A stretch of DNA of 64,000 nucleotides from an uncultured Thiohalocapsa sp. (GTDB lineage Bacteria; Pseudomonadota; Gammaproteobacteria; Chromatiales; Chromatiaceae), in NCBI RefSeq assembly GCF_913063425.1, contig NZ_CAJXYK010000030.1, positions 1-64,000 of the forward strand. The letters run 5' to 3'. Both the position numbers and the translations under genes were made by a program. Shown here piece by piece: positions 39,375 to 60,876 of this stretch. Within the stretch, counting starts at the first letter, position 1, and each line of letters opens with the position of its first letter. Under the pieces are notes generated by a model that ran no database searches, was not told the DNA's origin, and saw only the letters and a program-made list of their open reading frames with translations.

Positions 39375-40481
39375 TCAGTAGTCGGTTCCCAGATAGTCGC
39401 CCAGGATGCCGGGCCATTCGCTGGAGCCGATGACGCCGAGCAGCGCCACGTTGACCGGCTCCCGGATCGGGCTGCCGGCCGGCAATGCGATGCCGTAGAC
39501 CTGGCGGGTGAGGGTAAAGGGCAGGACCCGCAGCCGCTGGGCGAAGGCCTCCGAGAGCTCGTAGCGCAGAATCGGCGCATCGTGCACCACGGCATCCGCC
39601 TGGCCGTCCGCGAGCTTGCGCAGGGCCTCGGTGAGGTCGCCCACCGTGCGGTGGCGGATGCCCTCGGCGGCGAGGAAGCGGTCGCTGGTGCTGTCCGCCA
39701 GGGCCAGCACCCGCTTGAAGCGCAGGTCTTCGATGCCGTCGATGGCGCCGTCCAGCTCATTGACCGTCAGGGCCGTGGTGATGGCTGCGGTGAAGGCGGA
39801 GATCACGATGAGCCCGGCGAACATCCACACCATCGCGAGCACGCGGCCAAGCACTGTCACCGGTGCCTTGTCGCCATAGCCCACGGTGGTCAGGGTCACC
39901 GCCGACCACCAGAGCCCGGAGCTGATGCCGGCGAGGGGCTCGCGACGGAACTGCGCGTTGGCCCGGCGCTCCGCCAGCCAGATCAGCACGCCGATGACGA
40001 TCAGCAGCGCCAGCAGCGCGGCGACGATGCCCAGGAACTGCGGCGACATGAACCGCCCCAGCGCCGAGAGTAGGTTGGCGTTGCGCACCGGCACGGCAAT
40101 GGCGAGTCCGGTGGTGTGGAAGCCGTGCGAAAAGTCGAAGCGCCGCTCGCGCTCGCCGGTGATGGTGAGCGCCGCCACGGCGGCATCTACGCGGCCGGCG
40201 GCGACGGCGTCCAGCAGCTCGGTGAGGCCGAGCTCGCGGTATTGGTAGTCATAGCCGTTCTGGGCCGCGATTCGCTCCCAGAGCTCGATGGCGATGCCGG
40301 TCCACCGGCCGTCGGCGGCGTCCTGGTACGCAAACGGCGGTGCCTGGCGGGTGGCGATGACCATGGCGTCGGTGGAGCCGGGCTGACTTGTGGCCGGCGG
40401 TGCGGAGCCGCCCGCGCCGGGGGGCCCGGCGCCGAGTGGGGCAATCCAGCAAAGCAGCAGGAGCGGCAACAGGCGCTTCAT
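39375..40481 (-). CDS. GluR0-like ligand-gated potassium channel
   Basis: This 368-residue protein combines a periplasmic amino-acid-binding domain with a channel pore, the architecture of prokaryotic ionotropic glutamate receptors. A signal peptide (1-20) is followed by ligand lobe S1 (about 38-135, with IATRQAPPFAY and TITGERERRFDFSHGFHTTGLAI), the first helix (149-170), a P-loop with the potassium selectivity filter TVGYGD (199-204), a second helix (212-238), then ligand lobe S2 (about 245-368). All parts are present, so it should be functional. The ligand is probably an amino acid. Its physiological use in bacteria is little known. Confidence 0.92.
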   Translation of the reverse strand: MKRLLPLLLLCWIAPLGAGPPGAGGSAPPATSQPGSTDAMVIATRQAPPFAYQDAADGRWTGIAIELWERIAAQNGYDYQYRELGLTELLDAVAAGRVDAAVAALTITGERERRFDFSHGFHTTGLAIAVPVRNANLLSALGRFMSPQFLGIVAALLALLIVIGVLIWLAERRANAQFRREPLAGISSGLWWSAVTLTTVGYGDKAPVTVLGRVLAMVWMFAGLIVISAFTAAITTALTVNELDGAIDGIEDLRFKRVLALADSTSDRFLAAEGIRHRTVGDLTEALRKLADGQADAVVHDAPILRYELSEAFAQRLRVLPFTLTRQVYGIALPAGSPIREPVNVALLGVIGSSEWPGILGDYLGTDY

Positions 40482-40718: not shown

Positions 40719-43700
40719 TCAGCTCTGCGCCGGTTTGGAGGCGGGGGCACCGGAGCCGGCTCCAGAGCCTTTCACCCGCTCGCGCAGGCTCTGCACAAAG
40801 ACGTACAGCGGCGGGATCACGATGATGCCGAGGATGGTCGCCGCCAGCATGCCGCCAAAGACCACCACACCGAGCGAGACCTGGCTCGCGGCGCCGGCAC
40901 CGGTGGCGAGCAGCAGCGGCAGCATGCCGAGGATGAAGCTGAAGGCCGTCATCAGCACCGCGCGGAAGCGGATGCTCGCCGCGTCGGCTGCGGCCTGCTG
41001 GATGGGCCGTCCTTCCTCGCGCAGCTGCTTGGCGAACTCGACGATGAGGATGGCGTTCTTGCTGGCGAGGCCGATCAGCATCACCAGGCCGATCTGGGTG
41101 TAGACGTTGTTGTCCAGCCCCACCGCCCAGGTGGCGGCGAGGCCGCCGGCGCCGGCGATGACCACCGATAGGATGACCGAGGTGGGTACCGTCCAGCTCT
41201 CGTACTGCGCCACCAGGAAGAGGTAGACGAACAACAGCGCCAGCGCCAGCACGACGGCCGCCTCGCCGCCCGCCTGCACCTCCTGGAAGGTCGTCCCGCT
41301 CCAGTCGATGGCATAGCCGGTGGGCAGGTTGTTGCGCTCGATCTCGCGCAGGGCAGCGATGCCCTCGCCGGTGCTGCCGGTGGGCGTGACGTTGACGCTG
41401 GCGGCGCGGAACATGTTGAACCGCCGCGTGCTCTCCGGACCGAGCACCGGCTCCACCGTCACCAGTGACGCGAGCGGCACCATCTGCCCGCGGTTGTTGC
41501 GCACATGCAGCTTGGCGAGGTTCTCCGGGCTCATCCGGAAGGGCGCGTCGGCCTGCAGGAAGACCCGGAAGGTGCGCCCGAACAGGTTGAAGTCGTTGAC
41601 GTAGAGGGAGCCCAGATTCGCCTGAAGCGTCAGGAACAGGTCCGAGATGGGCACGCCCATAGTCTCCGCCCGTTGCCGGTCGATGTCGAGGAAGAGCTGC
41701 GGCGTGCGCGCGCTGAAGGTGGAGAAGGCGCGCTGGATCTCCGGATTCTGATTGGCGTTGATGAGCAGGCCCTGGAGCGATTGCGCCAGCTCCTCCGGCG
41801 AGCGGCCGGCGAGGTCCAGCAGCTCCGCCTCGATGCCGCCGGCGGTGCCGAGGCCCTGGATGGGTGGTGCGGCGAAGGCAAACACCGTCGCCTGCGGGAT
41901 GGACAGGAGCTTCGGCTGCACCCGCGCCAGCACGGCGTCCGCGGTGGAGTCCGGTCCCGGCCGGTCGTCCCAGTGCTTGAGTACGGCGATGGCGAGGCCG
42001 CCGCTGGAGCGCACGCCGGCGAGCAGGCTGAAGCCCGCCACCGTCAGCACGTGGTCGATCTCTTCTTCCGCCGCCAGCGTCTGTTGCACCTGGTCCAGCA
42101 CCGCGCCGGTGCGCGCCACCGACGAGGCATCGGGCAGCGACACGTCGACGAAGAAGTAGCCCGTATCTTCGCTTGGGATGAAACCGGTGGGTACCTTGTC
42201 GAACAGCCAGCCGGCGGCGACGCCGCTGGCGACGATGATCAGCACCGCGACGATGGAGACCTTGCCGAGCCCGGCCACCAGCCCCTTGTAGCCCTTGCGC
42301 GTCCAGTCGAGTCCGTTGTTGAACCAGCGCAGCGGGCCGCGCGGTGTGCGGGACGGCCGCAGCAGGAGACCGCAAAGCGCGGGGCTCAGGGTCAGCGCTA
42401 CCACCGAAGACAACGTGACGGCCACCGAGATGGTCACCGCGAACTGCAGATACAGCTGGCCCGTGATGCCGGGCAGGAAGGCGGTGGGTACGAACACCGC
42501 GTACAGCACCAGGGTGGTGGCGACCACCGGCCCGGTCACCTGCTCCATGGCGCGCTTGGCGGCCTCTTTGGCACGGAGTCCTTCCTCATCGATAAGCCGC
42601 TGGGTGTTCTCCACCACGACGATGGCGTCGTCCACGACGATGCCGATGGCGAGGATGACCGCGAACATGGACACCGTGTTGATGGACAGCCCCGCGGCGA
42701 GCAGAATCGCGAAGGTCCCGACAATGGACACCGGAATGGCCAGCACCGGCACCAGGGTGGAGCGCCAGTCGCCGAGGAAGACATAGGTCACCAGGATGAC
42801 CAGCCCGAGCGCCTGGAGCAGGGTGACCACGACGTTACGCATGCTGATGCGTACGAAGTCCGTGGTGTCGTAGTAGATGGCGTATTCCAGGTCATCCGGG
42901 AAGCGCTCGGCGAGCTGGTCCAGGGTCTGGTAGACAAGGTCTGCGGTTTCCAGCGCGTTGGCACCAGGCGAGAGATAAATGCCGAGCGCCGCCGTGGGCG
43001 CGCCGTCGATCCAGGCATTGGCGTCATAGGTCTGCGCACCCAGCTCGATGCGCGCGATGTCACCCAGGCGGATGGTGGAGCCGTCGGGGTTGGTGCGCAC
43101 CAGGATCTGCTCGAACTCGGACACCTCGGTGAGCCGGCCCTGGGCCTGGAGGCTGTAGGTGAAGGCGCGCCCTTCGTTGCCGGGCGGGGCGCCGAGCCGG
43201 CCCACGGCGGCTTGGAGGTTCTGGCGGCGGATGGCGCTCACCACCTCCGCCTCGCTCACACCCAGCGCGGTCATCTCCTGCGGGTCCAGCCAGACGCGCA
43301 TGGCGTAATCCAGCGGCCCGAACTGGCTCGCCTCGCCGACGCCAGGCAGCCGTGCCAGGGCGTCGCGGAGGTTGATCTCCATGTAGTTGGAGAGGAACAG
43401 CCGGTCGAAGGTGCGGTTGGGCGACTGCAGGTTCACCGTCAGCAGCATGCTGGTGGACTGCTTGCGCACCGACACGCCCTGCTGGGTGACCTCCGCCGGC
43501 AGCGTCGGCAGCGCCAGCGCGACCCGGTTCTGCACGTTCACCGCGGCGATGTCGGGGTCCGTGCCCACCGCGAAGGTCACGTCCAGGCGATATTGCCCGG
43601 TGTTGTCGCTGGTGGAAGTCATGTACAGCATGTCGTCCACGCCATTGACCTCCGCCTCGATGGGCGCGGCGACGGTCTCGGCGACCACCTCCGCGTTGGC

Positions 43701-43856
43701 GCCCGGATAGAACCCCTGCACCGAGACCTGGGGCGGGACGATGTCCGGGAACTGCGCCACCGGCAGCACGCGGATGCCGATGGCGCCGGCGATGATGATC
43801 ACCACGGAGATCACCATCGCGAAGCGCGCGCGGTTGATGAAGAAGGCGGAGAACAT
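40719..43856 (-). CDS. RND multidrug efflux permease (HAE1 family)
   Basis: This is a 1045-residue inner-membrane pump. It has the 12-helix RND layout with two large periplasmic loops. The proton-relay aspartates are visible in helix 4 (GIVVDDAIVVVEN), with VPTAFLPGITGQLYLQFAVTIS nearby and the HAE1 features FPDIVPPQVSVQGFYPGANAEVV at the start. It exports hydrophobic drugs or dyes with the adaptor encoded just upstream and an outer-membrane channel, which is not in the window. It begins 6 bases after the adaptor stop. The C-terminus has a short Gly/Ser/Pro-rich tail. Confidence 0.96.
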   Translation of the reverse strand: MFSAFFINRARFAMVISVVIIIAGAIGIRVLPVAQFPDIVPPQVSVQGFYPGANAEVVAETVAAPIEAEVNGVDDMLYMTSTSDNTGQYRLDVTFAVGTDPDIAAVNVQNRVALALPTLPAEVTQQGVSVRKQSTSMLLTVNLQSPNRTFDRLFLSNYMEINLRDALARLPGVGEASQFGPLDYAMRVWLDPQEMTALGVSEAEVVSAIRRQNLQAAVGRLGAPPGNEGRAFTYSLQAQGRLTEVSEFEQILVRTNPDGSTIRLGDIARIELGAQTYDANAWIDGAPTAALGIYLSPGANALETADLVYQTLDQLAERFPDDLEYAIYYDTTDFVRISMRNVVVTLLQALGLVILVTYVFLGDWRSTLVPVLAIPVSIVGTFAILLAAGLSINTVSMFAVILAIGIVVDDAIVVVENTQRLIDEEGLRAKEAAKRAMEQVTGPVVATTLVLYAVFVPTAFLPGITGQLYLQFAVTISVAVTLSSVVALTLSPALCGLLLRPSRTPRGPLRWFNNGLDWTRKGYKGLVAGLGKVSIVAVLIIVASGVAAGWLFDKVPTGFIPSEDTGYFFVDVSLPDASSVARTGAVLDQVQQTLAAEEEIDHVLTVAGFSLLAGVRSSGGLAIAVLKHWDDRPGPDSTADAVLARVQPKLLSIPQATVFAFAAPPIQGLGTAGGIEAELLDLAGRSPEELAQSLQGLLINANQNPEIQRAFSTFSARTPQLFLDIDRQRAETMGVPISDLFLTLQANLGSLYVNDFNLFGRTFRVFLQADAPFRMSPENLAKLHVRNNRGQMVPLASLVTVEPVLGPESTRRFNMFRAASVNVTPTGSTGEGIAALREIERNNLPTGYAIDWSGTTFQEVQAGGEAAVVLALALLFVYLFLVAQYESWTVPTSVILSVVIAGAGGLAATWAVGLDNNVYTQIGLVMLIGLASKNAILIVEFAKQLREEGRPIQQAAADAASIRFRAVLMTAFSFILGMLPLLLATGAGAASQVSLGVVVFGGMLAATILGIIVIPPLYVFVQSLRERVKGSGAGSGAPASKPAQS

Positions 43857-43862
43857 GGCGGC

Positions 43863-44987
43863 TCAGTCCTCCGCGTCCACGGCCGCCGGCGTCGGCTGCA
43901 CCACAAGGCCGGGACGCGCCTTCTGCACCCCCTCCACGATGACGTCCTGCCCCAGCTGAAGCCCGGACTGGACGATCCAGTCCGTATCCACGCGTGCACC
44001 CAGCTCCACTCGGGCGAGCTGGACGTCGTTCTCCGGCGAGACCACCAGCACGAAGCGGCCCGCCTGGTCCTGCTGCACGGCGATCTGCGGCACCACCATG
44101 GCCATCTCGGGCTGGGTGGCGCGGGAGATGACGGTGACGAACTGGCCCGGCAGCAGCAGCTCCTGCTTGTTGTCGAAGCTGGCGCGGACACGCACCGTGT
44201 CGGTGGTCGGATCGACTTCGGGATCGAAGAACTCGAAGCGGCCGGGCTCGTCCAGCATGGAGTTGTCCGCCAGGCGGACATAGGGCCGGAATTGGTCGCT
44301 GCTGTCCTGCATGCGCCGCACCGCGAGCATGGTGCGGTCATTCACCGGGACGTTGACGTAAATGGGATCGATGCGCACCAGCCGTGCGAGCGGACCCGAC
44401 CCCGGGCCGACCACTGCGCCCTCGGCGAAGGCCACGCGGCCGATGCGCCCGGTGAAGGGCGCGCGGATCTCGGTGTAGCCAAGCTCGATCTGCGCGCGCT
44501 GGAGCGCCGCCTCGGCGGCATCCCGCGCGGCCTGGGCTTCCTGCTCAGCGGCGATGGCGGCGTCGAGCTGCGCCTGGGTGGCGCCACCGCGCTCGATGAG
44601 CGGCTCCAGGCGCTGGCGCTGAAGACGGGCGTTGGTCAGGGTCGCCGTGGTGCGCTCCACATCGGCCCGGCGCGCGGTGACACTGGCCTCGTAGGGCTCG
44701 CGCTCGATGCGGAACAGCAGGTCGCCGGCGTTGACCATGGCGCCCTCCTCGAAGGCGCGCTCTTCAAGGAAGCCCTGGACCCGCGCCACCAGGTCCACGG
44801 CGTCGATGGCCTCGACGCGGCCGACGAATTCCATGCTCGGTGTGATCTCGCGCTCGCGCACCGTGGCCACACCGACGGCCGGCGGCGGTGGTGGTGCCGC
44901 AGCGGTGCCGGCCGTCTGCGCACCGGGCTCGCAGCCGCCAAGACCGATCATGCTGGACAAGACGAGGAGACCGAGGGATCGGCGCAT
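43863..44987 (-). CDS. RND efflux periplasmic adaptor (membrane fusion protein)
   Basis: This is a 374-residue adaptor lipoprotein. The lipobox GLGGC is at residue 19, with a proline-rich linker. The barrel-sandwich and lipoyl halves (VDLVARVQGFLEERAFEEGAMVNAGDLLFRIE and YTEIRAPFTGRIGRVAFAEGAVV) flank an alpha-hairpin (RRADVERTTATLTNARLQRQRLEPLI), then a beta barrel and a membrane-proximal domain. The ATG at 44987 is chosen because it starts the signal peptide; the open frame continues further upstream. It forms an operon with the permease. No regulator is adjacent. Confidence 0.95.
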   Translation of the reverse strand: MRRSLGLLVLSSMIGLGGCEPGAQTAGTAAAPPPPPAVGVATVREREITPSMEFVGRVEAIDAVDLVARVQGFLEERAFEEGAMVNAGDLLFRIEREPYEASVTARRADVERTTATLTNARLQRQRLEPLIERGGATQAQLDAAIAAEQEAQAARDAAEAALQRAQIELGYTEIRAPFTGRIGRVAFAEGAVVGPGSGPLARLVRIDPIYVNVPVNDRTMLAVRRMQDSSDQFRPYVRLADNSMLDEPGRFEFFDPEVDPTTDTVRVRASFDNKQELLLPGQFVTVISRATQPEMAMVVPQIAVQQDQAGRFVLVVSPENDVQLARVELGARVDTDWIVQSGLQLGQDVIVEGVQKARPGLVVQPTPAAVDAED

Positions 44988-45249
44988 GACAGCTCCATGA
45001 AAAAAAGGGAAAGAGGTGTTACAGAAGCCGCCGCTGCGCCGAGGCCGCAACGCGTCTGCGTCAAGGCTGCGGCGCCGATGGTAACCCCGGCGACCCTGGC
45101 AGGACAGCGTGCGGATGCCGCGGACCTCAAGCGGGACTTCAAAGGGAGCCGCTGAAAAATGGGCTTCCTGCCCATTGTCAGCACGCGCAGCGAAAACGCG
45201 ATTTCCGCTTCGCTTCATTGTCATCGACTTTCGTCGCCCAAGGCGCATG

Positions 45250-49041: not shown

Positions 49042-49298
49042 CGCCACGCTCGTCAAACGCAAAGGCGCTCGTGATGCCGCGGCGTTGCATCACGACGCGA
49101 CTGGTTCAGCTGGCTCCCTTTCCGGCTCGCGCAGTGATCTCCCGATGACCTCGATCAGGCGCAGCCTCTGGTAAGCGTCTCACGGCGGCTTCGACCTCGG
49201 TGAGGTCTACATCCATCGCTGCACCGAAAAGGTTGCACTACCCTTTGCTCGGCGATAAGCATCGGTGAAACACCGAACAGTGCGAGGACGCAGACATC

Positions 49299-52247
49299 AT
49301 GACACGCAAGGCCCTGCTGCTCGGGATCGACGCCTACGAGGAGGAAACGCTGCGACTGGACGCCGTCGCACGGGATGTGCGGGAGCTGGCGAAGGCCCTG
49401 GAGCTCGCCGGATTCCGCGGGGAGCAGGTCCAGGCCATTGTCGGCAGCCACGGCCTGTATCTCAGCACCGCCAATCTGCGCAAGCGCATCAAGCGCTTCC
49501 TGGAGGATGCCCGGGCTGGCGACGAGCTGCTGGTGTACTTTTCCGGGCACGGCATCGAGCGGGCCGGTCGCCGCTTGCTGCTGCCTCAGGACGTCGACTC
49601 AAGCGAGTCCGCGGACCCTTCGCAACTGATCAGCGACACGGAGCTGTACCAGCTCGCGCGCGCGGCGGAGTGCCGGGCCGACGCGGCGGTCTTCGTCATT
49701 GACGCCTGCCGCAACGACTCGCCACTTCCGACGCTGCTTACCAAGTCACCCGCCGCGGCAGCATCCCCGGCGGCTGCTTCGGTGGCTGATTTGGGCGCCG
49801 AGACGCCCAGCATCGCCTTCCTGTTCAGCTGCGCCGCCGGGGAGGTCAGCCACGCCCTGGAAGGCGACAACGCCATGAGCTGCTTCACCCGCGCGCTATG
49901 CGAGGCGCTGACCGCCGACGACGAGGTCAGCACCCTGGGCCAGCTGAAAGCTGCACTCCAGACGCGCCTGGATATGGCCTTGCATGCCCTGGCGAAGCAG
50001 CAGACCGCGACCTTGGGCGAGCTTCAATGTGCCGGCCGCGGCGGCGAGCCGCTGGCGCTGATGCTGAAGGACAACCCCGCAACGCGGCTGCGCCAGCGCA
50101 TGGAGCGCAGCGCCTGGGTGCGTGGCATCGAACAGGGGCCGCTGATGCATCTGGTCGCCACCGCCGGAGCCGGCCTCAGCATTCAGCTCAAGACCCTGAT
50201 AACCGAAGCAGAGGACCTCTGGCGCACCCAGCGCGAGGCCCTGCCCGAGCAACGCTGGCGCGACGCGTCCATGCCGGCGCGGGCGGTGCAGCGCCTGGAG
50301 CTGTTGCTCGGGGGCGAGCCCGAGCCCTGGCTGACGCCGGCGGAGGCGGCCTGCGCCCTGGCCATCCCCCACGTCTACGAGGCCATCCTCGCCGCCGCCG
50401 AGCAGCGCCTGCAACTAGACGGTAACCCGCTGGCGCCCGACGGCTATCCGCCGGAGGCAAGCCGTATGGCGCTCGCGCTGCGCAACCGCTTTGCGTCCGA
50501 GGCCGCCCACCAGCGTCGCCGCGAGCTGCTGCGCCGCCGCGGGCTCGACGCCGCCGCGAACGACCTGGCCGCCTGGCAGTTGCTGCACTTCCTGCACGAG
50601 AGCGGGGAGGTCTGGGACTACACCGAGCCGGCCCGCCGTGAGCGACCCGGCTGGATCGGTCGGGCGCTGGACCCACTGTTCGCGCCGGCCCCCATGGCCG
50701 AGGTCGCAGCCGACCATCGCGTGCCGCGGGTGCTGGACGGCGGCCGGCTGGTGGCCCTGGCGCGGCTCGCCTTCGCCGGCTTCGACGACATCCAGCTGGA
50801 GGCCGGCCGCGAGCGCGGCCGGCAATTGCGCCGGGACCGCTGCTTCGGTGAAGGGCCGACACAGCTCTGCGTGGACGAGGTGAAGCTCGCCCACCTGATG
50901 AACCTCGCCTTCGGCTTGGCGCTGGACGCCCGCCGGCTGCCGTCGCTGCTGGCCGAGCATCTGGGCGTGGACCCGCAGGTCTCCGCCGAGTCTCTGCACG
51001 GCACGCTGCGCACCGCCGAATGGCATCGCGGTGACGACGGCCTGTCGCTGCACCTGGACTGCCCGCATGAAGCCCTCGACGCGGCGCTGGAGACCCATGT
51101 GCGCGACCTGGACGAGCAGCTAAGCCGGCTCAGCCGGGAGCAGGTGCTGGCGCAGGATCTGCTGGGTCAACTGCCGAGGCGGCTGACGGACAAGGTCTCG
51201 CCCCAGCGCGACGACGACCTGCCCCGTTTCGCCCGACCGCACCTGACCTTCACGCTGGACCAGGCGCGGGTGCGGGAGCTGCTGATGGGCGAGAACCTCT
51301 ATGGCGACCCGGCGCTGGCCCTGCGCGAGCTCTACCAGAACGCGCTGGACGCCTGCCGCTACCGCCGCACCCGCGAGCGCTGGCTGCGCCACGAGGGCCA
51401 GTTCGACAACCGGGAGCCCCACTTCAAGGGCCGCATCATCTTCCGCGCCGGCTCCGCCAGCGGACGCGCCTATATCGAATGCGAGGACAACGGCATCGGC
51501 ATGGCCGAGCGCCATCTCCGGGGCCTGTTCGCCAAAGCCGGCCGGCGCTTTGCGGACAGCCACGAGTTCCACCTGGAGCAGGCGGACTGGGACGCCGCCG
51601 GCATCCCGTTCTTCCCGAACAGTCGGTTCGGCATCGGCGTGTTCAGCTACTTCATGCTCGCCGACGAGGTGCTGGTGGAGAGCCGGCGGCTGGCGGCGGA
51701 TGGCCAGGATCGCGAGACCGGTATCCGTGCCCGGGTGGTGGGCAGCGGCAGCCTGTTTCGGCTGCAGCCCTTCAACGGTGAGCCCCGCGGGACCCGTATC
51801 CGGCTGTACCTCAACCGTGAGGACCAAGACCCCGCAGAGCTGCTCGACGGCATCACCAAATGGCTGTGGTTGCCGGAGTTCGATGTCGAGATCCAAGGTC
51901 GCAGGCTGGTCAAGATGTCTGCTGGAGAGCCTGGACCCGCGATGGTGCGCAAATGCGGGCCGCTGGTCCCGATCCCGGAAAGTGCCGGCGAAGCTGGCCA
52001 AGTGCGCGTTTGGTGGGGAGCGGGACTCCTTTCCTGGAAACAGCATTTTCATGGGAGGATCGAGGCGACAGCTCAGCTCATGAGTGACGGCATCGCAACC
52101 GAGCATCAGGAGCATGACAACGCCGCCGGATTGGTCATCAACCTCTGCGAGCAGTGGCAGGCGGGCCTGTCGGTCGAGCGCAACAAAATCATCTGCTGGA
52201 CCGAGGCGGCCAATTGGGTGCGCGACCTCCTGCGAAGCCACGGCTAG
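49299..52247 (+). CDS. Caspase-HSP90-like ATPase fusion protein
   Basis: This 982-residue protein has a caspase-family peptidase domain at the N-terminus (about 1-240, catalytic H84 in YFSGHG and C137 in VIDACRND), a helical middle (250-640), and a C-terminal GHKL/HSP90-like ATPase (about 655-980) with Bergerat motifs ELYQNALDA (E677, N681), ECEDNGIGM (D730) and SRFGIGVFSYFML. An ATP-driven HSP90-like sensor joined to a caspase is a design described for bacterial NTP-dependent conflict systems, in which a stimulus releases protease activity. The TAG at 52245 ends the frame, but coding sequence continues in the same frame (see next entry), so the original protein was probably about 1,520 residues. 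The likely role is antiphage or self-killing. Confidence 0.88.
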   Translation: MTRKALLLGIDAYEEETLRLDAVARDVRELAKALELAGFRGEQVQAIVGSHGLYLSTANLRKRIKRFLEDARAGDELLVYFSGHGIERAGRRLLLPQDVDSSESADPSQLISDTELYQLARAAECRADAAVFVIDACRNDSPLPTLLTKSPAAAASPAAASVADLGAETPSIAFLFSCAAGEVSHALEGDNAMSCFTRALCEALTADDEVSTLGQLKAALQTRLDMALHALAKQQTATLGELQCAGRGGEPLALMLKDNPATRLRQRMERSAWVRGIEQGPLMHLVATAGAGLSIQLKTLITEAEDLWRTQREALPEQRWRDASMPARAVQRLELLLGGEPEPWLTPAEAACALAIPHVYEAILAAAEQRLQLDGNPLAPDGYPPEASRMALALRNRFASEAAHQRRRELLRRRGLDAAANDLAAWQLLHFLHESGEVWDYTEPARRERPGWIGRALDPLFAPAPMAEVAADHRVPRVLDGGRLVALARLAFAGFDDIQLEAGRERGRQLRRDRCFGEGPTQLCVDEVKLAHLMNLAFGLALDARRLPSLLAEHLGVDPQVSAESLHGTLRTAEWHRGDDGLSLHLDCPHEALDAALETHVRDLDEQLSRLSREQVLAQDLLGQLPRRLTDKVSPQRDDDLPRFARPHLTFTLDQARVRELLMGENLYGDPALALRELYQNALDACRYRRTRERWLRHEGQFDNREPHFKGRIIFRAGSASGRAYIECEDNGIGMAERHLRGLFAKAGRRFADSHEFHLEQADWDAAGIPFFPNSRFGIGVFSYFMLADEVLVESRRLAADGQDRETGIRARVVGSGSLFRLQPFNGEPRGTRIRLYLNREDQDPAELLDGITKWLWLPEFDVEIQGRRLVKMSAGEPGPAMVRKCGPLVPIPESAGEAGQVRVWWGAGLLSWKQHFHGRIEATAQLMSDGIATEHQEHDNAAGLVINLCEQWQAGLSVERNKIICWTEAANWVRDLLRSHG

Positions 52248-52532
52248 CTGGCCCTGCGGGACCGCCCGGAATGCCCACTAGCCGCTCTCGGCGGCCTCTC
52301 GGAGAAGCATCCGAGCCTCGTCTACAGACTGGATCGGGACCTGCGTGGCGGTCGCGGCGTCGAAGACGGGCGCCCGTGGAGCGAGAACCGTGACAAAGTA
52401 TCGGACACGGTCGGGCTTTTCGAGGCAGACCCTCTGATTCGGTCGATCTATGAGCCAGGGGAGCGCTTCCTCAGCCCAGCGACATATCTGGGTCCGGTTG
52501 CTGCGAGACTGCTGCGGGGGCGCTCCAGTCAA

Positions 52533-53861
52533 TTGCGTAGGGGCGGGTTCGCAATGCCGCGCCCGTTCGAGTCTTTGGCGAAATTCGACAATGAGCTCGG
52601 CAACCCGGCTATCGGCGCATGGACACTGCTGACGAGATACCTGCCCCGTGTTTCCGAAACCGACGGGGGCGCGGCGACGATTGCAACCCGCAGCGATGTC
52701 TACTGCGCCGTGAACGCGATCGCGACGCACCTCGATATCAGCTGCTCGGAAGCGGCGGCAATTGCAGAATCCCTAGCGGCGTGCGGACTGCAACTTCATC
52801 ACCTCGATGAGGTAGCCGCCCTTCCGCCGCTTACCGCGAACCAGCTTCGGTTGTTGTCACTGCGCGGCGATGGTGAAGCGCCTTGGGACGAGGTCATCAC
52901 GCCCGCTCGAATCATCATCAAAGCAGTGGGGGCCAACTCAACGGTTGCAGAAATACATGAGCAGGCCGGGTTGCTAAAGGAGCTCATCGGTGAGCTGCCG
53001 GACCTGGCTGCCACGTCGGCCCTCAGGGATCGTCTGACTCAAGTGCAGGTGTTCTTGCTTCGAAACAGTCAATTTGCCCCGCTTTCTGGCGATTTATCGA
53101 TCAAATGCATCGCCAGCATCGCCAAGGAGGGGAAGATACCGATCAAAGAGGTCGTTGCAGAGGCGCGCCCGTTGCTCGGCGATGTTGTTCAGGCTGAACA
53201 GGCCGAGCGCCTGGAGCGATTGGCTGCCCTCCCGGACGCGGCGGTCGAGCTGTTGAACGAGGTGAATCTCAACCCTGACCGCTGGACCGGTCGTCTTCCA
53301 GCAGGCCGTTTGATCGGCAAGGCACGGGACTGGTCGATACCGCTCGCTGAGGCAATCGAGCAGGCGGAGCCGTTGTCGGCTCTGGGCATCAAGATTCCCC
53401 GACTGAATCCCGCCGGCGCGGTGGAATCGCTGGATGAACGTTGCCTGAAACTGCTGTCGGGGAACCTAGACACCCGCTATCTAAACCGCGACAGCGTTAG
53501 TAGGGTTCAACTGCTGCAAGCGGCCCTGGAGTGGTCCATCTCCATCGAGCGCGTCAGCGAAATTGCGGAACCACTGCGTGTCCTCGGCGTCGAGGTCGCG
53601 AAGATCGATAACCTGGACCCGTCGATGGCGCGGAATGAGGCCCTCGTGCTCGCCGCAGAAACGCTGGGGCGCTACATCGATTGGGAACGCGCCAGGCTCG
53701 ACCCCTGGTGGCTCGCAAGCTGCTGTGTCGAGCGCAACAAGTCGCCTGCCGACTTCCGCGAGTCGCTGGCGCTGTTGCAAGCCGTCGGCATCGACGCGGA
53801 GGAGTGTCTGCGCTTCGTGGACTTCTGCGCCGCAGAGGGCGGCGGCGCAGGAGGGCAGTGA
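52533..53861 (+). CDS. Tandem helical-repeat protein, probably the C-terminal part of the caspase-HSP90 gene
   Basis: This 442-residue region is in the same frame as the caspase-HSP90 gene. The 285 bases between the amber stop and this ORF's first start have no stop, and their codons end mostly in G or C like real coding DNA. A TTG start at 52533 is therefore doubtful. The protein shows about four repeats of roughly 70-75 residues: WSIPLAEAIEQAEPLSALGIKIPRL, WSISIERVSEIAEPLRVLGVEVAKI, LDISCSEAAAIAESLAACGLQL and so on. Each probably folds as a small winged-helix-like unit. Similar repeat domains accompany HSP90-like modules in conflict systems. The repeats may sense the trigger or form a scaffold. 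It converges with the minus-strand operon after 39 bases. Confidence 0.7.
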   Translation: MRRGGFAMPRPFESLAKFDNELGNPAIGAWTLLTRYLPRVSETDGGAATIATRSDVYCAVNAIATHLDISCSEAAAIAESLAACGLQLHHLDEVAALPPLTANQLRLLSLRGDGEAPWDEVITPARIIIKAVGANSTVAEIHEQAGLLKELIGELPDLAATSALRDRLTQVQVFLLRNSQFAPLSGDLSIKCIASIAKEGKIPIKEVVAEARPLLGDVVQAEQAERLERLAALPDAAVELLNEVNLNPDRWTGRLPAGRLIGKARDWSIPLAEAIEQAEPLSALGIKIPRLNPAGAVESLDERCLKLLSGNLDTRYLNRDSVSRVQLLQAALEWSISIERVSEIAEPLRVLGVEVAKIDNLDPSMARNEALVLAAETLGRYIDWERARLDPWWLASCCVERNKSPADFRESLALLQAVGIDAEECLRFVDFCAAEGGGAGGQ

Positions 53862-53900
53862 CGCCGATCGCGCGGAGTCGGTTCGGCGCGCCGGCTCCGG

Positions 53901-55598
53901 CTAGTCGCGGATGGCGCTGATCCGCGCCTCGATCACTGCCCGCGGCAGGTTGGCGGCGCGGGCGAGGCCCGCCACATCCAGATCGCGCTTGGTTCGGCGG
54001 GCGGTGTCCAGGGCCTCTTGGACCAGGCTGTCGATCCAGTCCGGTCCGCTGTCGTCGGCTGGGGCTGCCTGATCCTCCGGCAGGGCCACGGACAGGCTGG
54101 GTCCGAGGGAGGCGGGCTCGGCGTCTGCGGGGGATGCCAGAGACTTGGTGACCAGGCTGTCGAGCTGGAGCTGGTCCAGCTGCCGGCGCAGCCCTTCCAC
54201 CGGTCGGCCGACGATGGCGCCCAGCATGTCCGCGCTCGCCCAGGAACCGCTGCCGCGCAGGGCGTCCACCACACGCGATATCCGGGCCGTGCGGGTCTTC
54301 GCCTCCTGCCACGGGCGTTGCGGCGCCCTGGACAGGTCCGGGTCTTCGGCGGTTTCGAGGAAGACCAGGTCGCGCTTGCCGGGGAGCAGGTAGGGCCGGG
54401 CGGTGCGCTCCGGCCGGGGCTCGGCATGCACCTGCACCGGCGGGCTCCAGGTGGTCCAGGCACTGTCGGCGCGCTGATACAGGCTGATCCAGCTCAGAAT
54501 GCCGTCCGCCGGCACCAGACCGCCCACCTCTGCATCGGCGTCGATAACGGCGCGCAGGCCGGCACGGAGCATCGGTGGCTCGATGAAGGGCTCCTGCGGC
54601 GGCCGATCGCCACCCAGACGCTGCCAGGCGCGCCATTCCAGCGCGCGCACGTCCGGCACATCGCCGAGCAGGTTCCAGCGCAGGTTGCCGAGGACCATGT
54701 CCACGTAGTCGCGCTTCGGCTCGGCGGCCATCAGCAGCAGGTGGGCACCGATGAGCCCGAGCATCGGGTTGTGAAACTTGCCATAGAGCAGCTCGCTGCG
54801 GACCTGCCCCGGTACCAGGTCGCGGCCCAGACGCAGGCCGAGCAGACCCATGTCGGTGCTCTGCGTGTCGGAGCTGTCGGGGTCGAAGGGCTCGCCGTGG
54901 TGCGGCAGCAGGATGCTGGCGCGCTCCACCCGCGGGCGCCCGTCGAAGGGCACGAACACCTGGGTATCCCAGTCGCCGAACAGGGTGAGCGCAATGGCGC
55001 GGCTGCCGGATGGGTCCACCCAGCGCAGCCGGTAGAAGCCCGGCGGCAGCCGGCGCGAGAAGGCGAGCCAGCCGTCGACGGCATCGGCCTCGGTGTGCTC
55101 CTCGCCGAACAGGGACAGGATGGCGCCGTCGCGGTCGCAGAGCTCCAATCCGTTGCCGACCCAGGCACCGGCGGCGGCCTCGCGGGATGCGGCGCGCACG
55201 AAGATGAAGAGCCGCGGATCAGCGTCGCCGGCGGTGACCGGTAATGGACCGCTGCCGGTGTCGCTGGTGCTGTGCGCATGGGCGGGCTCGCGGTAATAGT
55301 CCGGCCCGGTGCTGCTGTCGGTGGTGGGCAGCGCGGTGTTGCGCTGCGGCGCTGGGATGACCCGGTCCACCGGCGCCTCGGCGCTGTGGCGCAGGACCAG
55401 GTCGACGATCTGGCCGCCGCGCTCGACCCGCACCGGATACAGTCCCGGCGGCAGCTCCAGCCACAGGCTGCCATCTTGCTGCGCCAATGGCCGCTCGCGG
55501 CCGTCGCTGACGTGGATGCGGCTCAGCCAATCGACCTGGCCGTCCAGCTCGACCCGGACCTGGAAGGGGTGTCGTGCGGGCTGCTCAGAAGTGGACAT
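53901..55598 (-). CDS. Unknown large protein of the caspase operon
   Basis: This 565-residue protein is not recognised as a named family. Two beta-sandwich-like regions occur at 1-85 and about 125-235 (SLWLELPPGLYPVRVERGG and RRLPPGFYRLRWVDPSG are parallel patterns). A helical core follows (about 270-345: LLYGKFHNPMLGLIGAHLLLMAA, YVDMVLGNLRWNLLGDVPDVRALEW). The C-terminal region has short helical modules that resemble winged helices (GSGSWASADMLGAIVGRPVEGLRRQL). It overlaps the caspase gene by 14 bases and so is expressed with it. As a partner it could be the substrate, activator or scaffold of the caspase. Confidence 0.65.
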   Translation of the reverse strand: MSTSEQPARHPFQVRVELDGQVDWLSRIHVSDGRERPLAQQDGSLWLELPPGLYPVRVERGGQIVDLVLRHSAEAPVDRVIPAPQRNTALPTTDSSTGPDYYREPAHAHSTSDTGSGPLPVTAGDADPRLFIFVRAASREAAAGAWVGNGLELCDRDGAILSLFGEEHTEADAVDGWLAFSRRLPPGFYRLRWVDPSGSRAIALTLFGDWDTQVFVPFDGRPRVERASILLPHHGEPFDPDSSDTQSTDMGLLGLRLGRDLVPGQVRSELLYGKFHNPMLGLIGAHLLLMAAEPKRDYVDMVLGNLRWNLLGDVPDVRALEWRAWQRLGGDRPPQEPFIEPPMLRAGLRAVIDADAEVGGLVPADGILSWISLYQRADSAWTTWSPPVQVHAEPRPERTARPYLLPGKRDLVFLETAEDPDLSRAPQRPWQEAKTRTARISRVVDALRGSGSWASADMLGAIVGRPVEGLRRQLDQLQLDSLVTKSLASPADAEPASLGPSLSVALPEDQAAPADDSGPDWIDSLVQEALDTARRTKRDLDVAGLARAANLPRAVIEARISAIRD

Positions 55599-56619
55599 CG
55601 TTGACCCCGTCCAGCGCGCGCTGCACGAAGAAATGCTCCTCGCCGGTGGCGAGATCGGCGAGGCGGTGGTAGCCGATGCCGAGCCGCAATGCCCAGGGTG
55701 CGGTGTCGACCGCGCCCTCCCGCAGGACCTGAAGCGTCGGCGCCTCGAGGCGGATGGGACCCCGCCGCCGGGCGGAGAAGCGGATGCGGCAATTGGCGGT
55801 GGCCGCAGGCTGCACACCCGGCAGCCGGGCGCCGAAGCGGGCCGGGGGCTCGGTCGGCAGGCTGGAGACGACCTCCACCTGCTGGCGCTGGCCGTTGCGG
55901 TCGGCCATCTCCGGCACGCGCCGCTCCAGGTAGGCCTTCAGCTCCGCCGCGGTGACGCCGCCGTCCGGATGCAGCGGCGCGGCCCCACGCACGGCCTCCA
56001 GCAGCGCCGCGGTGAGATGGCCACGCACGCGCTCGCCGGTCCTGCCCTCGAAAGCGGCCTGCTGGAACTCGGTGGCGTAAGCGATGAAATGGCGGCTGCC
56101 GCCGGCGGTCGCGTCGTGACGCGGGCAGTTCAGCTCGCTGCCGCGGCCGGCAGCGGCGTATTCCCGCAACCGGCAGCAGTCCAGGAAAACCACCACCTCC
56201 TGAAAGCGCAGGCAGTGGTGGATCAGGCGCCGGTACTCGCTGCTGCTGAGGGCGGCCTGGCGGCGCCGAAAAGACCAATTGGCCATGCACAGCGAGACGT
56301 CGTCGATCTGCTCCGCATGGCCGTGGCCGCTGAAATAGAAATAGAACCGCCGTGGCTGCGCCACGTCGTCCGCTGCCTGCCAGAGCCGATCCAGCGCGTC
56401 GTCCACTTGGCCCTGCTCGGGGCGCAGCGGGGAGGGGGTGGACAGGACCAGCTCGCAGTGGCTCTGGGGCAGGCCGCCGCCGGTGTCCTGATCCGTGAGC
56501 CAGGCGGCAAACTCGCGGGCGTCGTCGATGGCCCCTTCGAGGTCGTTGCCGCCGACGCCGTAGGCTGGATAGTCGTTGACGCCGATCACCAGCGCGAAGT
56601 CGTTGGACTGCTCCACCAT
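55585..56619 (-). CDS. Caspase-family peptidase, second protease of the locus
   Basis: This 344-residue peptidase C14-type protein has H99 in FYFSGHGHAEQ and C149 in VVFLDCCR, preceded by the usual first strand (FALVIGVNDYPAYG). The C-terminal 100 residues form a beta-rich domain (ANCRIRFSARRRGPIRL onward) that is not part of the minimal caspase fold. An intact catalytic dyad suggests activity. It lies 11 bases downstream of the hydrolase gene and overlaps the next gene by 14 bases, so the three form one operon, convergent with the first caspase gene. Confidence 0.88.
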   Translation of the reverse strand: MVEQSNDFALVIGVNDYPAYGVGGNDLEGAIDDAREFAAWLTDQDTGGGLPQSHCELVLSTPSPLRPEQGQVDDALDRLWQAADDVAQPRRFYFYFSGHGHAEQIDDVSLCMANWSFRRRQAALSSSEYRRLIHHCLRFQEVVVFLDCCRLREYAAAGRGSELNCPRHDATAGGSRHFIAYATEFQQAAFEGRTGERVRGHLTAALLEAVRGAAPLHPDGGVTAAELKAYLERRVPEMADRNGQRQQVEVVSSLPTEPPARFGARLPGVQPAATANCRIRFSARRRGPIRLEAPTLQVLREGAVDTAPWALRLGIGYHRLADLATGEEHFFVQRALDGVNDVHF

Positions 56620-56630
56620 GGCGCCCTGCC

Positions 56631-58091
56631 TCAGGCGTCGATGAGGCTGCGGACGCTCAGCATGGTCGCCCGGTCCTGGGCGAAGCCGCCATGCTTGATG
56701 GCTGCGGAGCGCAGTCCTGGCGGGGCCGCGTCGTCGGTGTCCGACAGCACCAGTCGGTCCGCGCCGGGAGCCTTGAGGCAGTCCGCGACAGCGACGAGGA
56801 GCTTGTCGTCGTAGGGCGCCTTGCCGCTGAGGAAGCGCTCCATACCGAGTATGGGGCAGTCCGCCTGATCCGGCTCCAGCACGCCGGAGATCAGGTACAG
56901 CAGCGAGCGGGTGTACACGAAGGGGACCAGGTTGTCTTCGCGTTCGCGGGCGTCCTGCATGGTGAAGATGCGCAGCCGCCTGCAGCGCTCCGGCGCCTGC
57001 ACCACCGCGTTGTGGAAGAGGTCGCTGCGCACCGCCGGCGCCAGGAAGATCACATTGCGGATGCGCACGCCGATGTTGCGGGCCGCATTGGCCTCGAGCA
57101 GGTGGCAGATAGCAATGGAGCCGGCGCTGTGGCCCACCAGGTCCACCTTGAAGTCGGGGCGCTCGCGCTGAAGGGCCGCCAGCTCGTCGAGGAAGAGCCT
57201 GCCCGGATGGCTGTCAGGGCCAAGCTCCGGGCCGTTCGGCAGCCACATTTGCTCGGCGACGGACTTCATATTGCCCCACATCCAGGCCCCGAAGTCGTCC
57301 AGATACAGCTCGCGCACGGCCTCTTCCATCAGCGTCGGATAGAAGCCGTGGTCGCGTCGCTGCATCCAGCGCCCAATGCAGCGGGCCAGCACGCGTGCGA
57401 GCGCGGCGGCTGCCGCGGCAGTGCTGATGATCCCTTTGGCACCGGGTGCGGCGGGCTCGGCGAGGCCCTCGCGCAGTCGCTCTGCGCCCTGATCGCGATC
57501 ATGCAGCATGCGCCGCAGCTCAGGGTCTGCGCTGAGCTCGATGTCGATCTCGTGCTCGAGCTGCTGTGCCAGCTGGCGCTCCGGCAGCGCCGCCCCGCCC
57601 CGCGCGCCGGTGGCTGCGGCCGTGTCCAGGTCCTCGAAGGGGCGCTCCTTCGCAAGCTCGCTCGCAATGTCCGCGTCGTCCGGCTCCTGCCCGACCCCTT
57701 TGGCGCCCACCGACACCCCTACGTACTTGGCCAGCTTCTTGGCCAGCAAGGCGATCAGACGCCGGAACAGCTCGGTGTCGTGAATATCGCGCAGGTTGCG
57801 CAACAGGGTCTCGATCGCGCCCGTCTCCCAGAGGAAGAACACCGGATGGGCGCGACTGGCGGCGTAGTAGTCCTGCAGCAGTTGCACTGCACCGGCGAGG
57901 CCCTGATCCTCCCCCACGAGACCGCCGTGGAAGTGCACCACCATGCGATCGGTGTCCGTGGTGCGCAGCTCAGCGAACAGGGCGCGAATGTCTTCAGGGG
58001 ACGTGTGCAGGCTGCCGCTGGCGCGAAAGCTGCCGTTGGGGCCGACGTTGACGTAGTGGCGCGGATCGAGGATCGTGGCGGTGTTGCTCAT
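56631..58091 (-). CDS. Alpha/beta hydrolase (lipase-like) of the caspase operon
   Basis: This 486-residue cytoplasmic hydrolase has an HGG oxyanion motif (residues 55-57 in VVHFHGGLVG) and the nucleophile elbow VGHSAG (S322). FLAPAVRSDLF follows. The acid and histidine are probably near residues 380 and 460 (SLLYLIS, IKHGGFAQD). No signal peptide is seen. Between the two motifs there is a long helical insertion (about 100-250). As the first gene of the operon with a caspase, it could be an effector that damages membranes once activated, or a maturation partner. Both are inference. Confidence 0.75.
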   Translation of the reverse strand: MSNTATILDPRHYVNVGPNGSFRASGSLHTSPEDIRALFAELRTTDTDRMVVHFHGGLVGEDQGLAGAVQLLQDYYAASRAHPVFFLWETGAIETLLRNLRDIHDTELFRRLIALLAKKLAKYVGVSVGAKGVGQEPDDADIASELAKERPFEDLDTAAATGARGGAALPERQLAQQLEHEIDIELSADPELRRMLHDRDQGAERLREGLAEPAAPGAKGIISTAAAAAALARVLARCIGRWMQRRDHGFYPTLMEEAVRELYLDDFGAWMWGNMKSVAEQMWLPNGPELGPDSHPGRLFLDELAALQRERPDFKVDLVGHSAGSIAICHLLEANAARNIGVRIRNVIFLAPAVRSDLFHNAVVQAPERCRRLRIFTMQDAREREDNLVPFVYTRSLLYLISGVLEPDQADCPILGMERFLSGKAPYDDKLLVAVADCLKAPGADRLVLSDTDDAAPPGLRSAAIKHGGFAQDRATMLSVRSLIDA

Positions 58092-60751: not shown

Positions 60752-60876
60752 CTGATCACCGATGCGTACGTGGAAGCGCCTTCACCGGCGCGACGGGCAC
60801 CCAGGCGCGGCGGCGACGCTCCCACAAGGCAAGCCCTTGCACGGAGTGATGATCAAGGCCGCTCTTCACACACCGC

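What the first reader, a model, noticed from the sequence alone, without database searches (positions are those of the whole stretch)
49299..53861. Caspase fused to an HSP90-like ATPase and helical repeats: a candidate regulated-protease defence protein
Seen: an N-terminal caspase with intact H84 and C137, then an HSP90-type Bergerat ATPase (E677, N681, D730), then roughly four repeats of 70-75 residues in the same frame. Known: caspases coupled to HSP90-like ATPases and winged-helix repeats have been described among bacterial NTP-dependent conflict systems. Inference: ATP-dependent sensing controls caspase activation, giving antiphage or programmed-death activity. I know of no experimental work on this exact arrangement.
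Basis: partly seen in the sequence, partly recalled or inferred. Interest (0 to 1): 0.88.

Follow-up and report, generated by a model that had tools for sequence, protein, structure and literature searches.

The report
Broken caspase-HSP90 switch in mobile cassette
A genome related to purple sulfur bacteria carries a rare protein-cutting switch (caspase plus HSP90-like ATPase) that is cut short by a stop codon before its sensor-like repeats, next to three linked genes (a second caspase, a partner and a lipase-like enzyme) that look like a movable cell-suicide cassette.

Summary
The caspase (H84, C137), the HSP90-type ATPase (E677, N681, D730) and the repeats are there, but not as one 1,520-residue protein. 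An in-frame TAG (52245-52247, codon 983) ends the frame at 982 residues, and all repeats lie behind it. Of 14 loci of this family found (remnants included), 9 are intact and 5 broken by different lesions; the window is one of the broken ones. One intact relative has a trypsin-like protease in place of the caspase, so the N-terminus looks like an exchangeable protease slot. The gene faces a convergent three-gene operon (alpha/beta hydrolase, second caspase, unknown protein), and the four genes form one block with the same edges and dissimilar flanks in three genomes. In one of them the second caspase and the unknown protein are a single fused frame. Best reading: a mobile, ATP-gated protease cassette for cell suicide or antiphage defence, its sensor gene freshly broken here (or misread). 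The domains are already named in Pfam; I saw no experiment on them in the listings of ten literature searches. Defence is inferred, not shown.

The parts
49299..52247 (+). ORF 1: 982-aa caspase / iHD-CE / HSP90-type ATPase protein, ended by an in-frame TAG
   Evidence: 79% identical to the corresponding part of the Rhabdochromatium marinum protein
49299..50048 (+). caspase domain (catalytic His84 at 49548-49550, Cys137 at 49707-49709)
   Evidence: Pfam C14 E 3e-23; model of residues 1-258 matches MALT1 paracaspase, Z 21.4, rmsd 3.0, 200 aligned; residues conserved
50115..51194 (+). iHD-CE domain (PF24401), inactive HD-like domain
   Evidence: E 6e-43; the HD motif is replaced in 11 of 11 iHD-CE sequences aligned and kept in 2 of 2 HD-CE sequences
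51216..51833 (+). HSP90-type (GHKL) ATPase domain (E677 51327-51329, N681 51339-51341, D730 51486-51488)
   Evidence: family profile against PDB: TRAP1/HtpG about E 1e-8; motifs 11 of 11
52245..52247 (+). in-frame TAG, codon 983; the nearest relative has a sense codon here
52248..53861 (+). continuation of the same frame after the stop (537 codons, then TGA), homologous to the C-terminal third of intact relatives
   Evidence: 63% identical to L001; dN/dS 0.31
52692..53699 (+). five diverged repeats of 66-69 aa (wHTH-HSP90_Na-assoc type), residues 1132-1467; partial sixth to 53825
   Evidence: PF24410 E 1.3e-4, 22.7 bits just under its cut-off of 23 in the window, 257 bits in relative L054
53901..55601 (-). 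566-aa protein of unknown fold, third gene of the convergent operon
   Evidence: 72% identical to its counterparts in two other genomes; no Pfam, NCBIfam or PDB match; fused to the second caspase in G001
55585..56619 (-). second caspase, 344 aa (His99; DCC motif with Cys149 at the catalytic place)
   Evidence: Pfam C14 E 1.4e-11; motifs printed; conserved in L001 and G001
56631..58091 (-). alpha/beta hydrolase (DUF900-like, GHSAGS motif), first gene of the convergent operon
   Evidence: start placed at 58091 because DNA similarity with two other genomes ends at 58071-58075
49298..58075 (.). whole four-gene cassette: block with the same edges in three genomes and dissimilar flanks

Best explanation
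The window carries a recently broken copy of the sensor-protease gene of a rare protease / iHD-CE / HSP90-ATPase / wHTH-repeat family, inside a mobile four-gene convergent cassette. In intact relatives the C-terminal repeats would hold the sensor, binding a foreign or damaged nucleic acid or protein. The HSP90-type ATPase would be the ATP-driven clamp switch, the dead HD domain a scaffold shared with HD-enzyme relatives, and the N-terminal protease the output. Once released, the caspase would cut the second caspase, its partner or the alpha/beta hydrolase, turning on a lipase-like enzyme that harms the cell (abortive infection or cell suicide). In this strain the TAG would leave a 982-aa protein with caspase and ATPase but no repeats, so the sensor arm is most likely dead while the three other genes are open and conserved. 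Shown: domains, catalytic residues, stop codon, cassette edges, fusion, protease swap. Inferred: sensing, ATP gating, cascade, toxicity, defence.
For: Domains and motifs. Protease slot: G032 keeps iHD-CE/HSP90/wHTH but has a trypsin-like N-terminus. Output logic: in relatives G016 and G100 an HD domain with intact HD motif sits on the same kind of ATPase, while all 11 iHD-CE sequences aligned, each with an N-terminal protease, have lost the HD motif. Cassette: same edges in window, G013 and G001, flanks dissimilar; the 566-aa gene is found in 3 of the 112 genomes searched (own included), all three among the four that carry this caspase gene. Fusion of second caspase and 566-aa protein in G001. 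Parallel context in G032: closely spaced same-strand lipase/subtilase and subtilase frames upstream. Peptidase-associated small genes next to relatives: Pepco by Pfam in L031 and L002, by similarity in L003, L005, L053, L054; Trypco1 in L001. Break recent or an error: dN/dS 0.31 after the stop, 0.21-0.33 before; changes on window versus L001 branch 39:45 before and 29:35 after the stop; no further stop in 537 codons. Frequent loss: 5 of 14 loci broken.
Against: No experiment. The four-gene cassette was found in only three genomes. Around cyanobacterial and actinobacterial copies, 13 neighbour ORFs were scanned with Pfam: 7 ordinary families, 1 Fic protein, 5 without a match, and no such operon. 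No relative confirmed in viral contigs (0 of 98 matches to two peptide patterns); the 5 phage records found match only the ATPase part. The only PADLOC match for the two main-gene pieces is a generic caspase model. Neither Pepco nor Trypco1 was found beside the window gene. In L055 Pfam does not call the caspase; only the aligned His and Cys speak for it. The fold of the 566-aa protein is unknown, and the structure models are weak (mean pLDDT 48.9 and 63.4). The main gene exists without the operon in G044.
Confidence: 0.5

Rival explanations
1. Sequencing or assembly error: the gene is intact in the organism and makes the full protein of about 1,520 residues, as in Rhabdochromatium marinum.
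For: One in-frame stop and otherwise an open, conserved frame with no sign of relaxed selection behind it.
Against: Breaks of the same gene occur in relatives: mobile-element insertion in G044, large deletion in G001, insertion in L005. Read data could not be inspected.
Confidence: 0.3
2. Functional split: a 982-aa caspase/ATPase protein and a separately started repeat protein (TTG at 52533 or ATG at 52554; 442 or 435 aa) work together as two polypeptides.
For: The second ORF (52533-53861) still holds all five repeats and the constraint continues behind the stop. The frame also ends between ATPase and repeats in G044 and G699.
Against: The ATG at 52554 is not conserved in L001; the 95 or 102 codons between stop and restart would be lost although that stretch is conserved too (59% identity, dN/dS 0.35 for codons 984-1130); the G044 break is a mobile-element insertion and G699 also lacks the caspase.
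Confidence: 0.1
3. Not defence: a stress-induced or developmental cell-death or proteostasis protease, with the HSP90-type ATPase sensing misfolded protein.
For: HSP90-type ATPase; ordinary neighbours in several relatives; no phage association.
Against: No Pfam match to the HSP90 middle or C-terminal chaperone parts; patchy distribution in the genomes sampled and movement as a cassette fit an accessory conflict gene better than housekeeping.
Confidence: 0.25
4. The convergent operon and the main gene are two independent systems that merely travel side by side.
For: Convergent, hence separately transcribed; the operon stays open where the main gene is broken (window, G001); G044 has the main gene but no operon was found there; most relatives lack the operon.
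Against: Same outer edges in three genomes with dissimilar flanks; similar divergence of all four genes between window and L001, 69-74% identity.
Confidence: 0.35

Closest known systems
Pfam iHD-CE (PF24401) / wHTH-HSP90_Na-assoc (PF24410) / Pepco (PF24393) proteins
   Same: iHD-CE, ATPase and wHTH in the same order as in intact relatives; Pfam scanned on L004, L032, L046, L054, L055, alignment with L001-L004
   Different: The window copy is cut by TAG before the repeats, no Pepco gene was found next door, and it faces a three-gene operon
HD-CE / HSP90 proteins with an active HD motif (G016, G100)
   Same: Same HD-like and ATPase core
   Different: They keep the HD motif and have no N-terminal protease; the window has the protease and no HD motif
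Caspase and alpha/beta-hydrolase pairs of VMAP ternary conflict systems (PMC7159879, passages seen)
   Same: Caspase gene next to an alpha/beta-hydrolase gene
   Different: No MoxR, vWA or VMAP match among the 16 window ORFs scanned with Pfam
Canu caspase-nuclease antiphage system (PMC12799240, passages seen)
   Same: Multi-gene caspase locus in which a caspase activates a co-encoded enzyme (shown there, inferred here)
   Different: No metallo-beta-lactamase nuclease match; the possible target here is an alpha/beta hydrolase, plus a second caspase
VcSduA Shedu protein with GHKL ATPase (PMC12137116, passages seen)
   Same: GHKL ATPase proposed to gate a fused effector enzyme in an antiphage protein
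   Different: Effector there is a nuclease behind an N-terminal ATPase; here a caspase is N-terminal to the ATPase

Membership tests
Caspase family C14 | profile match and His/Cys dyad | tested here: met
   83.1 bits against cut-off 21.4; H84 and C137; MALT1 fold Z 21.4, rmsd 3.0, 200 aligned
iHD-CE (PF24401) | profile match over cut-off, HD motif lost | tested here: met
   147.9 bits against cut-off 27; motif lost in 11 of 11 aligned, window included
GHKL/HSP90-type ATPase | N-box E and N, DxGxG motif, HSP90-like sequence | tested here: met
   E677, N681, D730, G734 in 11 of 11; TRAP1/HtpG about E 1e-8; Pfam HATPase_c itself is under its cut-off (15.6 against 26.4)
HSP90/HtpG chaperone | middle and C-terminal chaperone domains | tested here: not met
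   HtpG model matches residues 662-844 only, 50 bits against cut-off 371; no Pfam HSP90 family listed at E up to 1
wHTH-HSP90_Na-assoc repeats (PF24410) | profile match over cut-off in the same protein | tested here: inconclusive
   22.7 bits against cut-off 23, and behind the stop codon; second look at fold matches of the tail gave nothing above Z 5.2 at rmsd 18
EACC1-caspase two-gene system | EACC1 domain gene plus EACC1-type caspase | tested here: not met
   EACC1 19.7 bits against cut-off 23.6 in the hydrolase gene and no EACC1 match at E up to 0.01 in its L001 counterpart; caspase_w_EACC1 about 68 bits against cut-off 140 for both caspases
VMAP ternary system | MoxR ATPase and vWA genes in the same neighbourhood | tested here: not met
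   none among the 16 ORFs of 37.8-63.4 kb scanned at E up to 0.01; small ORFs at 48.5-49.0 and 58.4-59.2 kb were not scanned
VMAP ternary system | caspase accompanied by an alpha/beta-hydrolase gene | tested here: met
   55585-56619 and 56631-58091
Canu system | MBL-fold nuclease gene | tested here: not met
   no such Pfam match in the cassette genes at E up to 0.01; the 566-aa protein has no match of any kind
Antiphage defence system | protection against phage that depends on catalytic residues | not testable with these tools
   needs experiment

The most novel reading that the evidence does not exclude
A two-step bacterial caspase cascade in one movable cassette: an HSP90-clamp-gated initiator protease (caspase or, by swap, trypsin) turns on a second caspase and its partner, which release a lipase-like alpha/beta hydrolase that opens the cell. 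An ATP-clamp protein would play the part that NLR/apoptosome proteins play in animals, and the initiator half is so costly that it is repeatedly broken while the executioner half is kept.
Probability: 0.25. Interest if true: 0.8.

Novelty: new variant of a known kind. Interest (0 to 1): 0.55.

Why it matters
HSP90-type ATPases are known as chaperones; this family seems to use one as the switch of a fused protease, with interchangeable N-terminal output (caspase, trypsin, or an active HD enzyme). If the cassette works as proposed, it would be a prokaryotic initiator-executioner caspase pair driven by a clamp ATPase rather than an NLR-type ATPase, and testable with one intact four-gene relative.

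Tried and rejected
Rejected: one continuous 1,520-aa protein as the sequence stands (stop at codon 983). Argued against: recoding of TAG; the neighbouring 566-aa gene ends with TAG (one gene only). Rejected: EACC1, VMAP and Canu membership. Considered: clustering of breaks just behind the ATPase (codon 983 in the window, codon 989 in G044, a frame change in G699); three cases, found with queries that favour intact heads, are too few to claim a hot spot. Led nowhere: viral contigs (0 confirmed of 98 pattern matches); phage records (5, ATPase part only); PDB search of the 566-aa family (0 matches at E up to 10) and of the tail (9, all E 0.35 or more); fold search of the tail (best Z 5.2 at rmsd 18); AlphaFold of residues 1-982 with five sequences (mean pLDDT 48.9); ARAGORN at 36-64 kb (no tRNA); own-genome search for Pepco (0). 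The own-genome caspase search missed the window's second caspase, so genome counts from that tool are lower bounds; the class and phylum surveys are samples. Literature: in searches I saw only the listed papers (12 to 20 of up to 9,564; one search had none; one search listed 20 of 29). None of those listed names HD-CE, iHD-CE or Pepco as a protein domain as far as titles, abstracts and term counts show; subscription papers are mostly not held.
Full report
WHAT IS THERE. The frame that starts with ATG at 49299 is closed by TAG at 52245-52247 after 982 codons. It then stays open for another 537 codons to TGA at 53859-53861. Residues 2-225 are a caspase (Pfam C14, E 3e-23), 273-632 an iHD-CE domain (PF24401, E 6e-43), and about 640-845 an HSP90-type ATPase. 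Sequence profiles of the family hit MALT1 paracaspase (E 5e-9) and TRAP1/HtpG (about E 1e-8) among solved structures. The structure model of residues 1-982 is poor overall (mean pLDDT 48.9), but its first 258 residues match MALT1 (Z 21.4, rmsd 3.0, 200 aligned). The part behind the stop holds five repeats of 66-69 residues (1132-1467) and a partial sixth; 4 of the 15 repeat pairs are reached by at most one of 500 shuffles. Pfam's wHTH-HSP90_Na-assoc scores 22.7 bits there, just below its cut-off of 23, but 257 bits in relative L054.

THE STOP. The nearest relative, Rhabdochromatium marinum (L001), has one intact 1,515-aa ORF with a sense codon at that place. Aligned codons give dN/dS of 0.33 (caspase), 0.25 (iHD-CE), 0.21 (ATPase) and 0.31 behind the stop. 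With the G032 and Azospirillum proteins as outgroups, changes assigned to the window branch versus the L001 branch are 39:45 before the stop (125 unresolved) and 29:35 behind it (132 unresolved). There is thus no sign that the tail has been drifting for long: the stop is recent, or an error.

THE FAMILY. A peptide-pattern scan of genome contigs gave 5 confirmed loci out of 37 candidate stretches. Plasmids gave 100 records with any match, one of them covering most of the query, an Azospirillum brasilense megaplasmid (L046). Sampled family searches for iHD-CE over its cut-off gave 2 of 369 genomes of the class (the window itself and a partial match in G016), 3 of 386 of the phylum of the Leptolyngbya locus L002, and 3 of 396 of the phylum of the Kineosporia locus L004; each count includes the genome used as centre. 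So the family is rare and patchy in these samples. In 11 aligned sequences (the window included; G044 only up to its break) the ATPase residues are present in 11 and the caspase dyad in 10. Pfam calls the caspase in the window, L004, L046 and L054 but not in L055, where only the aligned residues speak for it; L056 and others were not scanned. The eleventh, G032, has a trypsin-like protease in place of the caspase (Trypsin_2, E 3e-6). All 11 iHD-CE domains lack the HD motif that the HD-CE proteins of G016 and G100 keep. I read this as one regulatory chassis with an exchangeable output enzyme: an active HD enzyme in one branch, an added protease in the other.

BROKEN COPIES. Of 14 distinct loci of this family, remnants included, 9 are intact (L001, L002, L003, L004, L046, L054, L055, L056 and the trypsin form in L032) and 5 are not. 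The window has the stop. G001, of the same genus, has lost about residues 283-1465, with a frame change at the junction; its remaining caspase part still shows dN/dS of about 0.31 against both other genomes, so this loss too is recent or the caspase is still in use. G044 is split at codon 989 by a multi-copy mobile element with 12-base terminal inverted repeats and an 8-base target duplication, its tail lying on another contig. Leptolyngbya PCC 7375 (L005) has its iHD-CE split by an inserted ORF that reads like a transposase by eye. G699 lacks the caspase and changes frame before the repeats. No control set of genes was examined for its rate of breakage, so the high loss rate is suggestive only.

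THE CASSETTE. Convergent with the gene lie an alpha/beta hydrolase (58091-56631), a second caspase (56619-55585, with His99 and a DCC motif; motifs) and a 566-aa protein without any Pfam, NCBIfam or PDB match. The same four genes stand in the same order in L001. DNA similarity between window, G013 and G001 starts at the start codon of the main gene and ends within about 20 bases of that of the hydrolase (window 49298-58075). The flanks compared (the whole window, about 18 and 16 kb in G001, about 1 and 10 kb in G013) are dissimilar, apart from one 85-base match of window 60786-60867 to a distant place in G001. The 566-aa gene occurs in 3 of the 112 genomes, all of them carriers of this caspase gene; the fourth carrier, G044, has no detectable copy. 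In G001 the second caspase, shortened at its C-terminus, and the 566-aa protein form one 875-codon open frame, which argues that the two proteins work together. In G032, lipase/subtilase and subtilase frames lie closely spaced on the same strand directly upstream of the trypsin form. This is a parallel of the window's hydrolase and second protease. Around cyanobacterial and actinobacterial copies, 13 neighbour ORFs were scanned: 7 belong to ordinary families, 1 is a Fic protein, 5 have no match. A Pepco-type gene lies directly upstream in six loci, two identified by Pfam (L031, L002) and four by similarity (L003, L005, L053, L054); L001 has a divergent Trypco1 gene; in the window neither was found.

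MECHANISM. Shown: the domains, conserved catalytic residues, protease swap, loss of the HD motif, stop codon, cassette edges and gene fusion. Inferred: the repeats sense a trigger; ATP binding closes the HSP90-type clamp and frees the N-terminal protease; the freed caspase cuts the second caspase, its partner or the hydrolase; the hydrolase or wider proteolysis stops the cell. In the window the sensor arm is missing from the caspase polypeptide, so the first step should be dead, or mis-regulated if the short protein is stable.

COMPARISON WITH WHAT IS KNOWN. Passages of PMC7159879 describe caspase and alpha/beta-hydrolase pairs, Trypco1/2 and EACC1 systems, but 'Hsp90' and 'HD-CE' do not occur in its main text. 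Passages of PMC8195603 describe death-domain and TRADD-N systems with caspases, also without HSP90. Passages of PMC12799240 report Canu, where a caspase activates a nuclease and protects against T4, and list further caspase defences. Passages of PMC12137116 report a GHKL ATPase proposed to gate a nuclease in an antiphage protein. Passages of PMC10907252 report DGR-diversified targets associated with conflict systems in Thiohalocapsa, a purple sulfur bacterium. The domain names iHD-CE, HD-CE, Pepco and wHTH-HSP90_Na-assoc exist in Pfam, so the protein family has been recognised. In the listings of ten literature searches (capped lists, titles and abstracts) I saw no paper that names these domains and no experiment on them. 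What I did not see described there is the four-gene cassette, the caspase/566-aa fusion and the trypsin swap with its lipase-subtilase neighbours.

VERDICT. The cassette is the better finding.

Noticed in passing
L032 8778-17723 (+): Row of three closely spaced same-strand frames: lipase_3 plus subtilase (902 codons), subtilase (426 codons), then trypsin / iHD-CE / HSP90 / wHTH. A parallel protease-lipase locus without caspase.
   Followed up: partly
L029/L030 (G001:C12, about 79,683-82,307, minus): Second caspase and 566-aa protein fused in one 875-codon frame in the same-genus genome.
   Followed up: yes
L031 19737 to end and L073 start (G044): Main gene split at codon 989 by a multi-copy mobile element with 12-base inverted ends and an 8-base target duplication.
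   Followed up: yes
L005 9188-10555 (minus): Inserted ORF that reads like a transposase, by eye, in the iHD-CE region of the Leptolyngbya PCC 7375 copy.
   Followed up: partly
L053 4734-9252: G699 copy lacks the caspase, has a Pepco-type gene about 60 bases upstream, and changes frame between ATPase and repeats.
   Followed up: partly
L034 11541-16108 (minus): Active-motif HD-CE/HSP90 protein next to an AAA/SMC-type gene that resembles LmuB and PtuA models of PADLOC.
   Followed up: no
window 52248-53858: GC3 drops from 0.87 before the stop to 0.72 behind it; L001 shows the same drop (0.87 to 0.67), so it is a property of the C-terminal part and not of the break.
   Followed up: partly
window 39378-40481 (minus): Gene resembling an ionotropic-glutamate-receptor-type channel (SBP_bac_3 with Lig_chan).
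   Followed up: no
window 41505-45155 (+): 1,216-aa open frame without Pfam match lying antisense to AcrB and HlyD efflux genes, most likely a shadow ORF of GC-rich DNA.
   Followed up: no
G000:C31:1451-2053 (L028): Another caspase domain elsewhere in the same genome, 39.7 bits.
   Followed up: no
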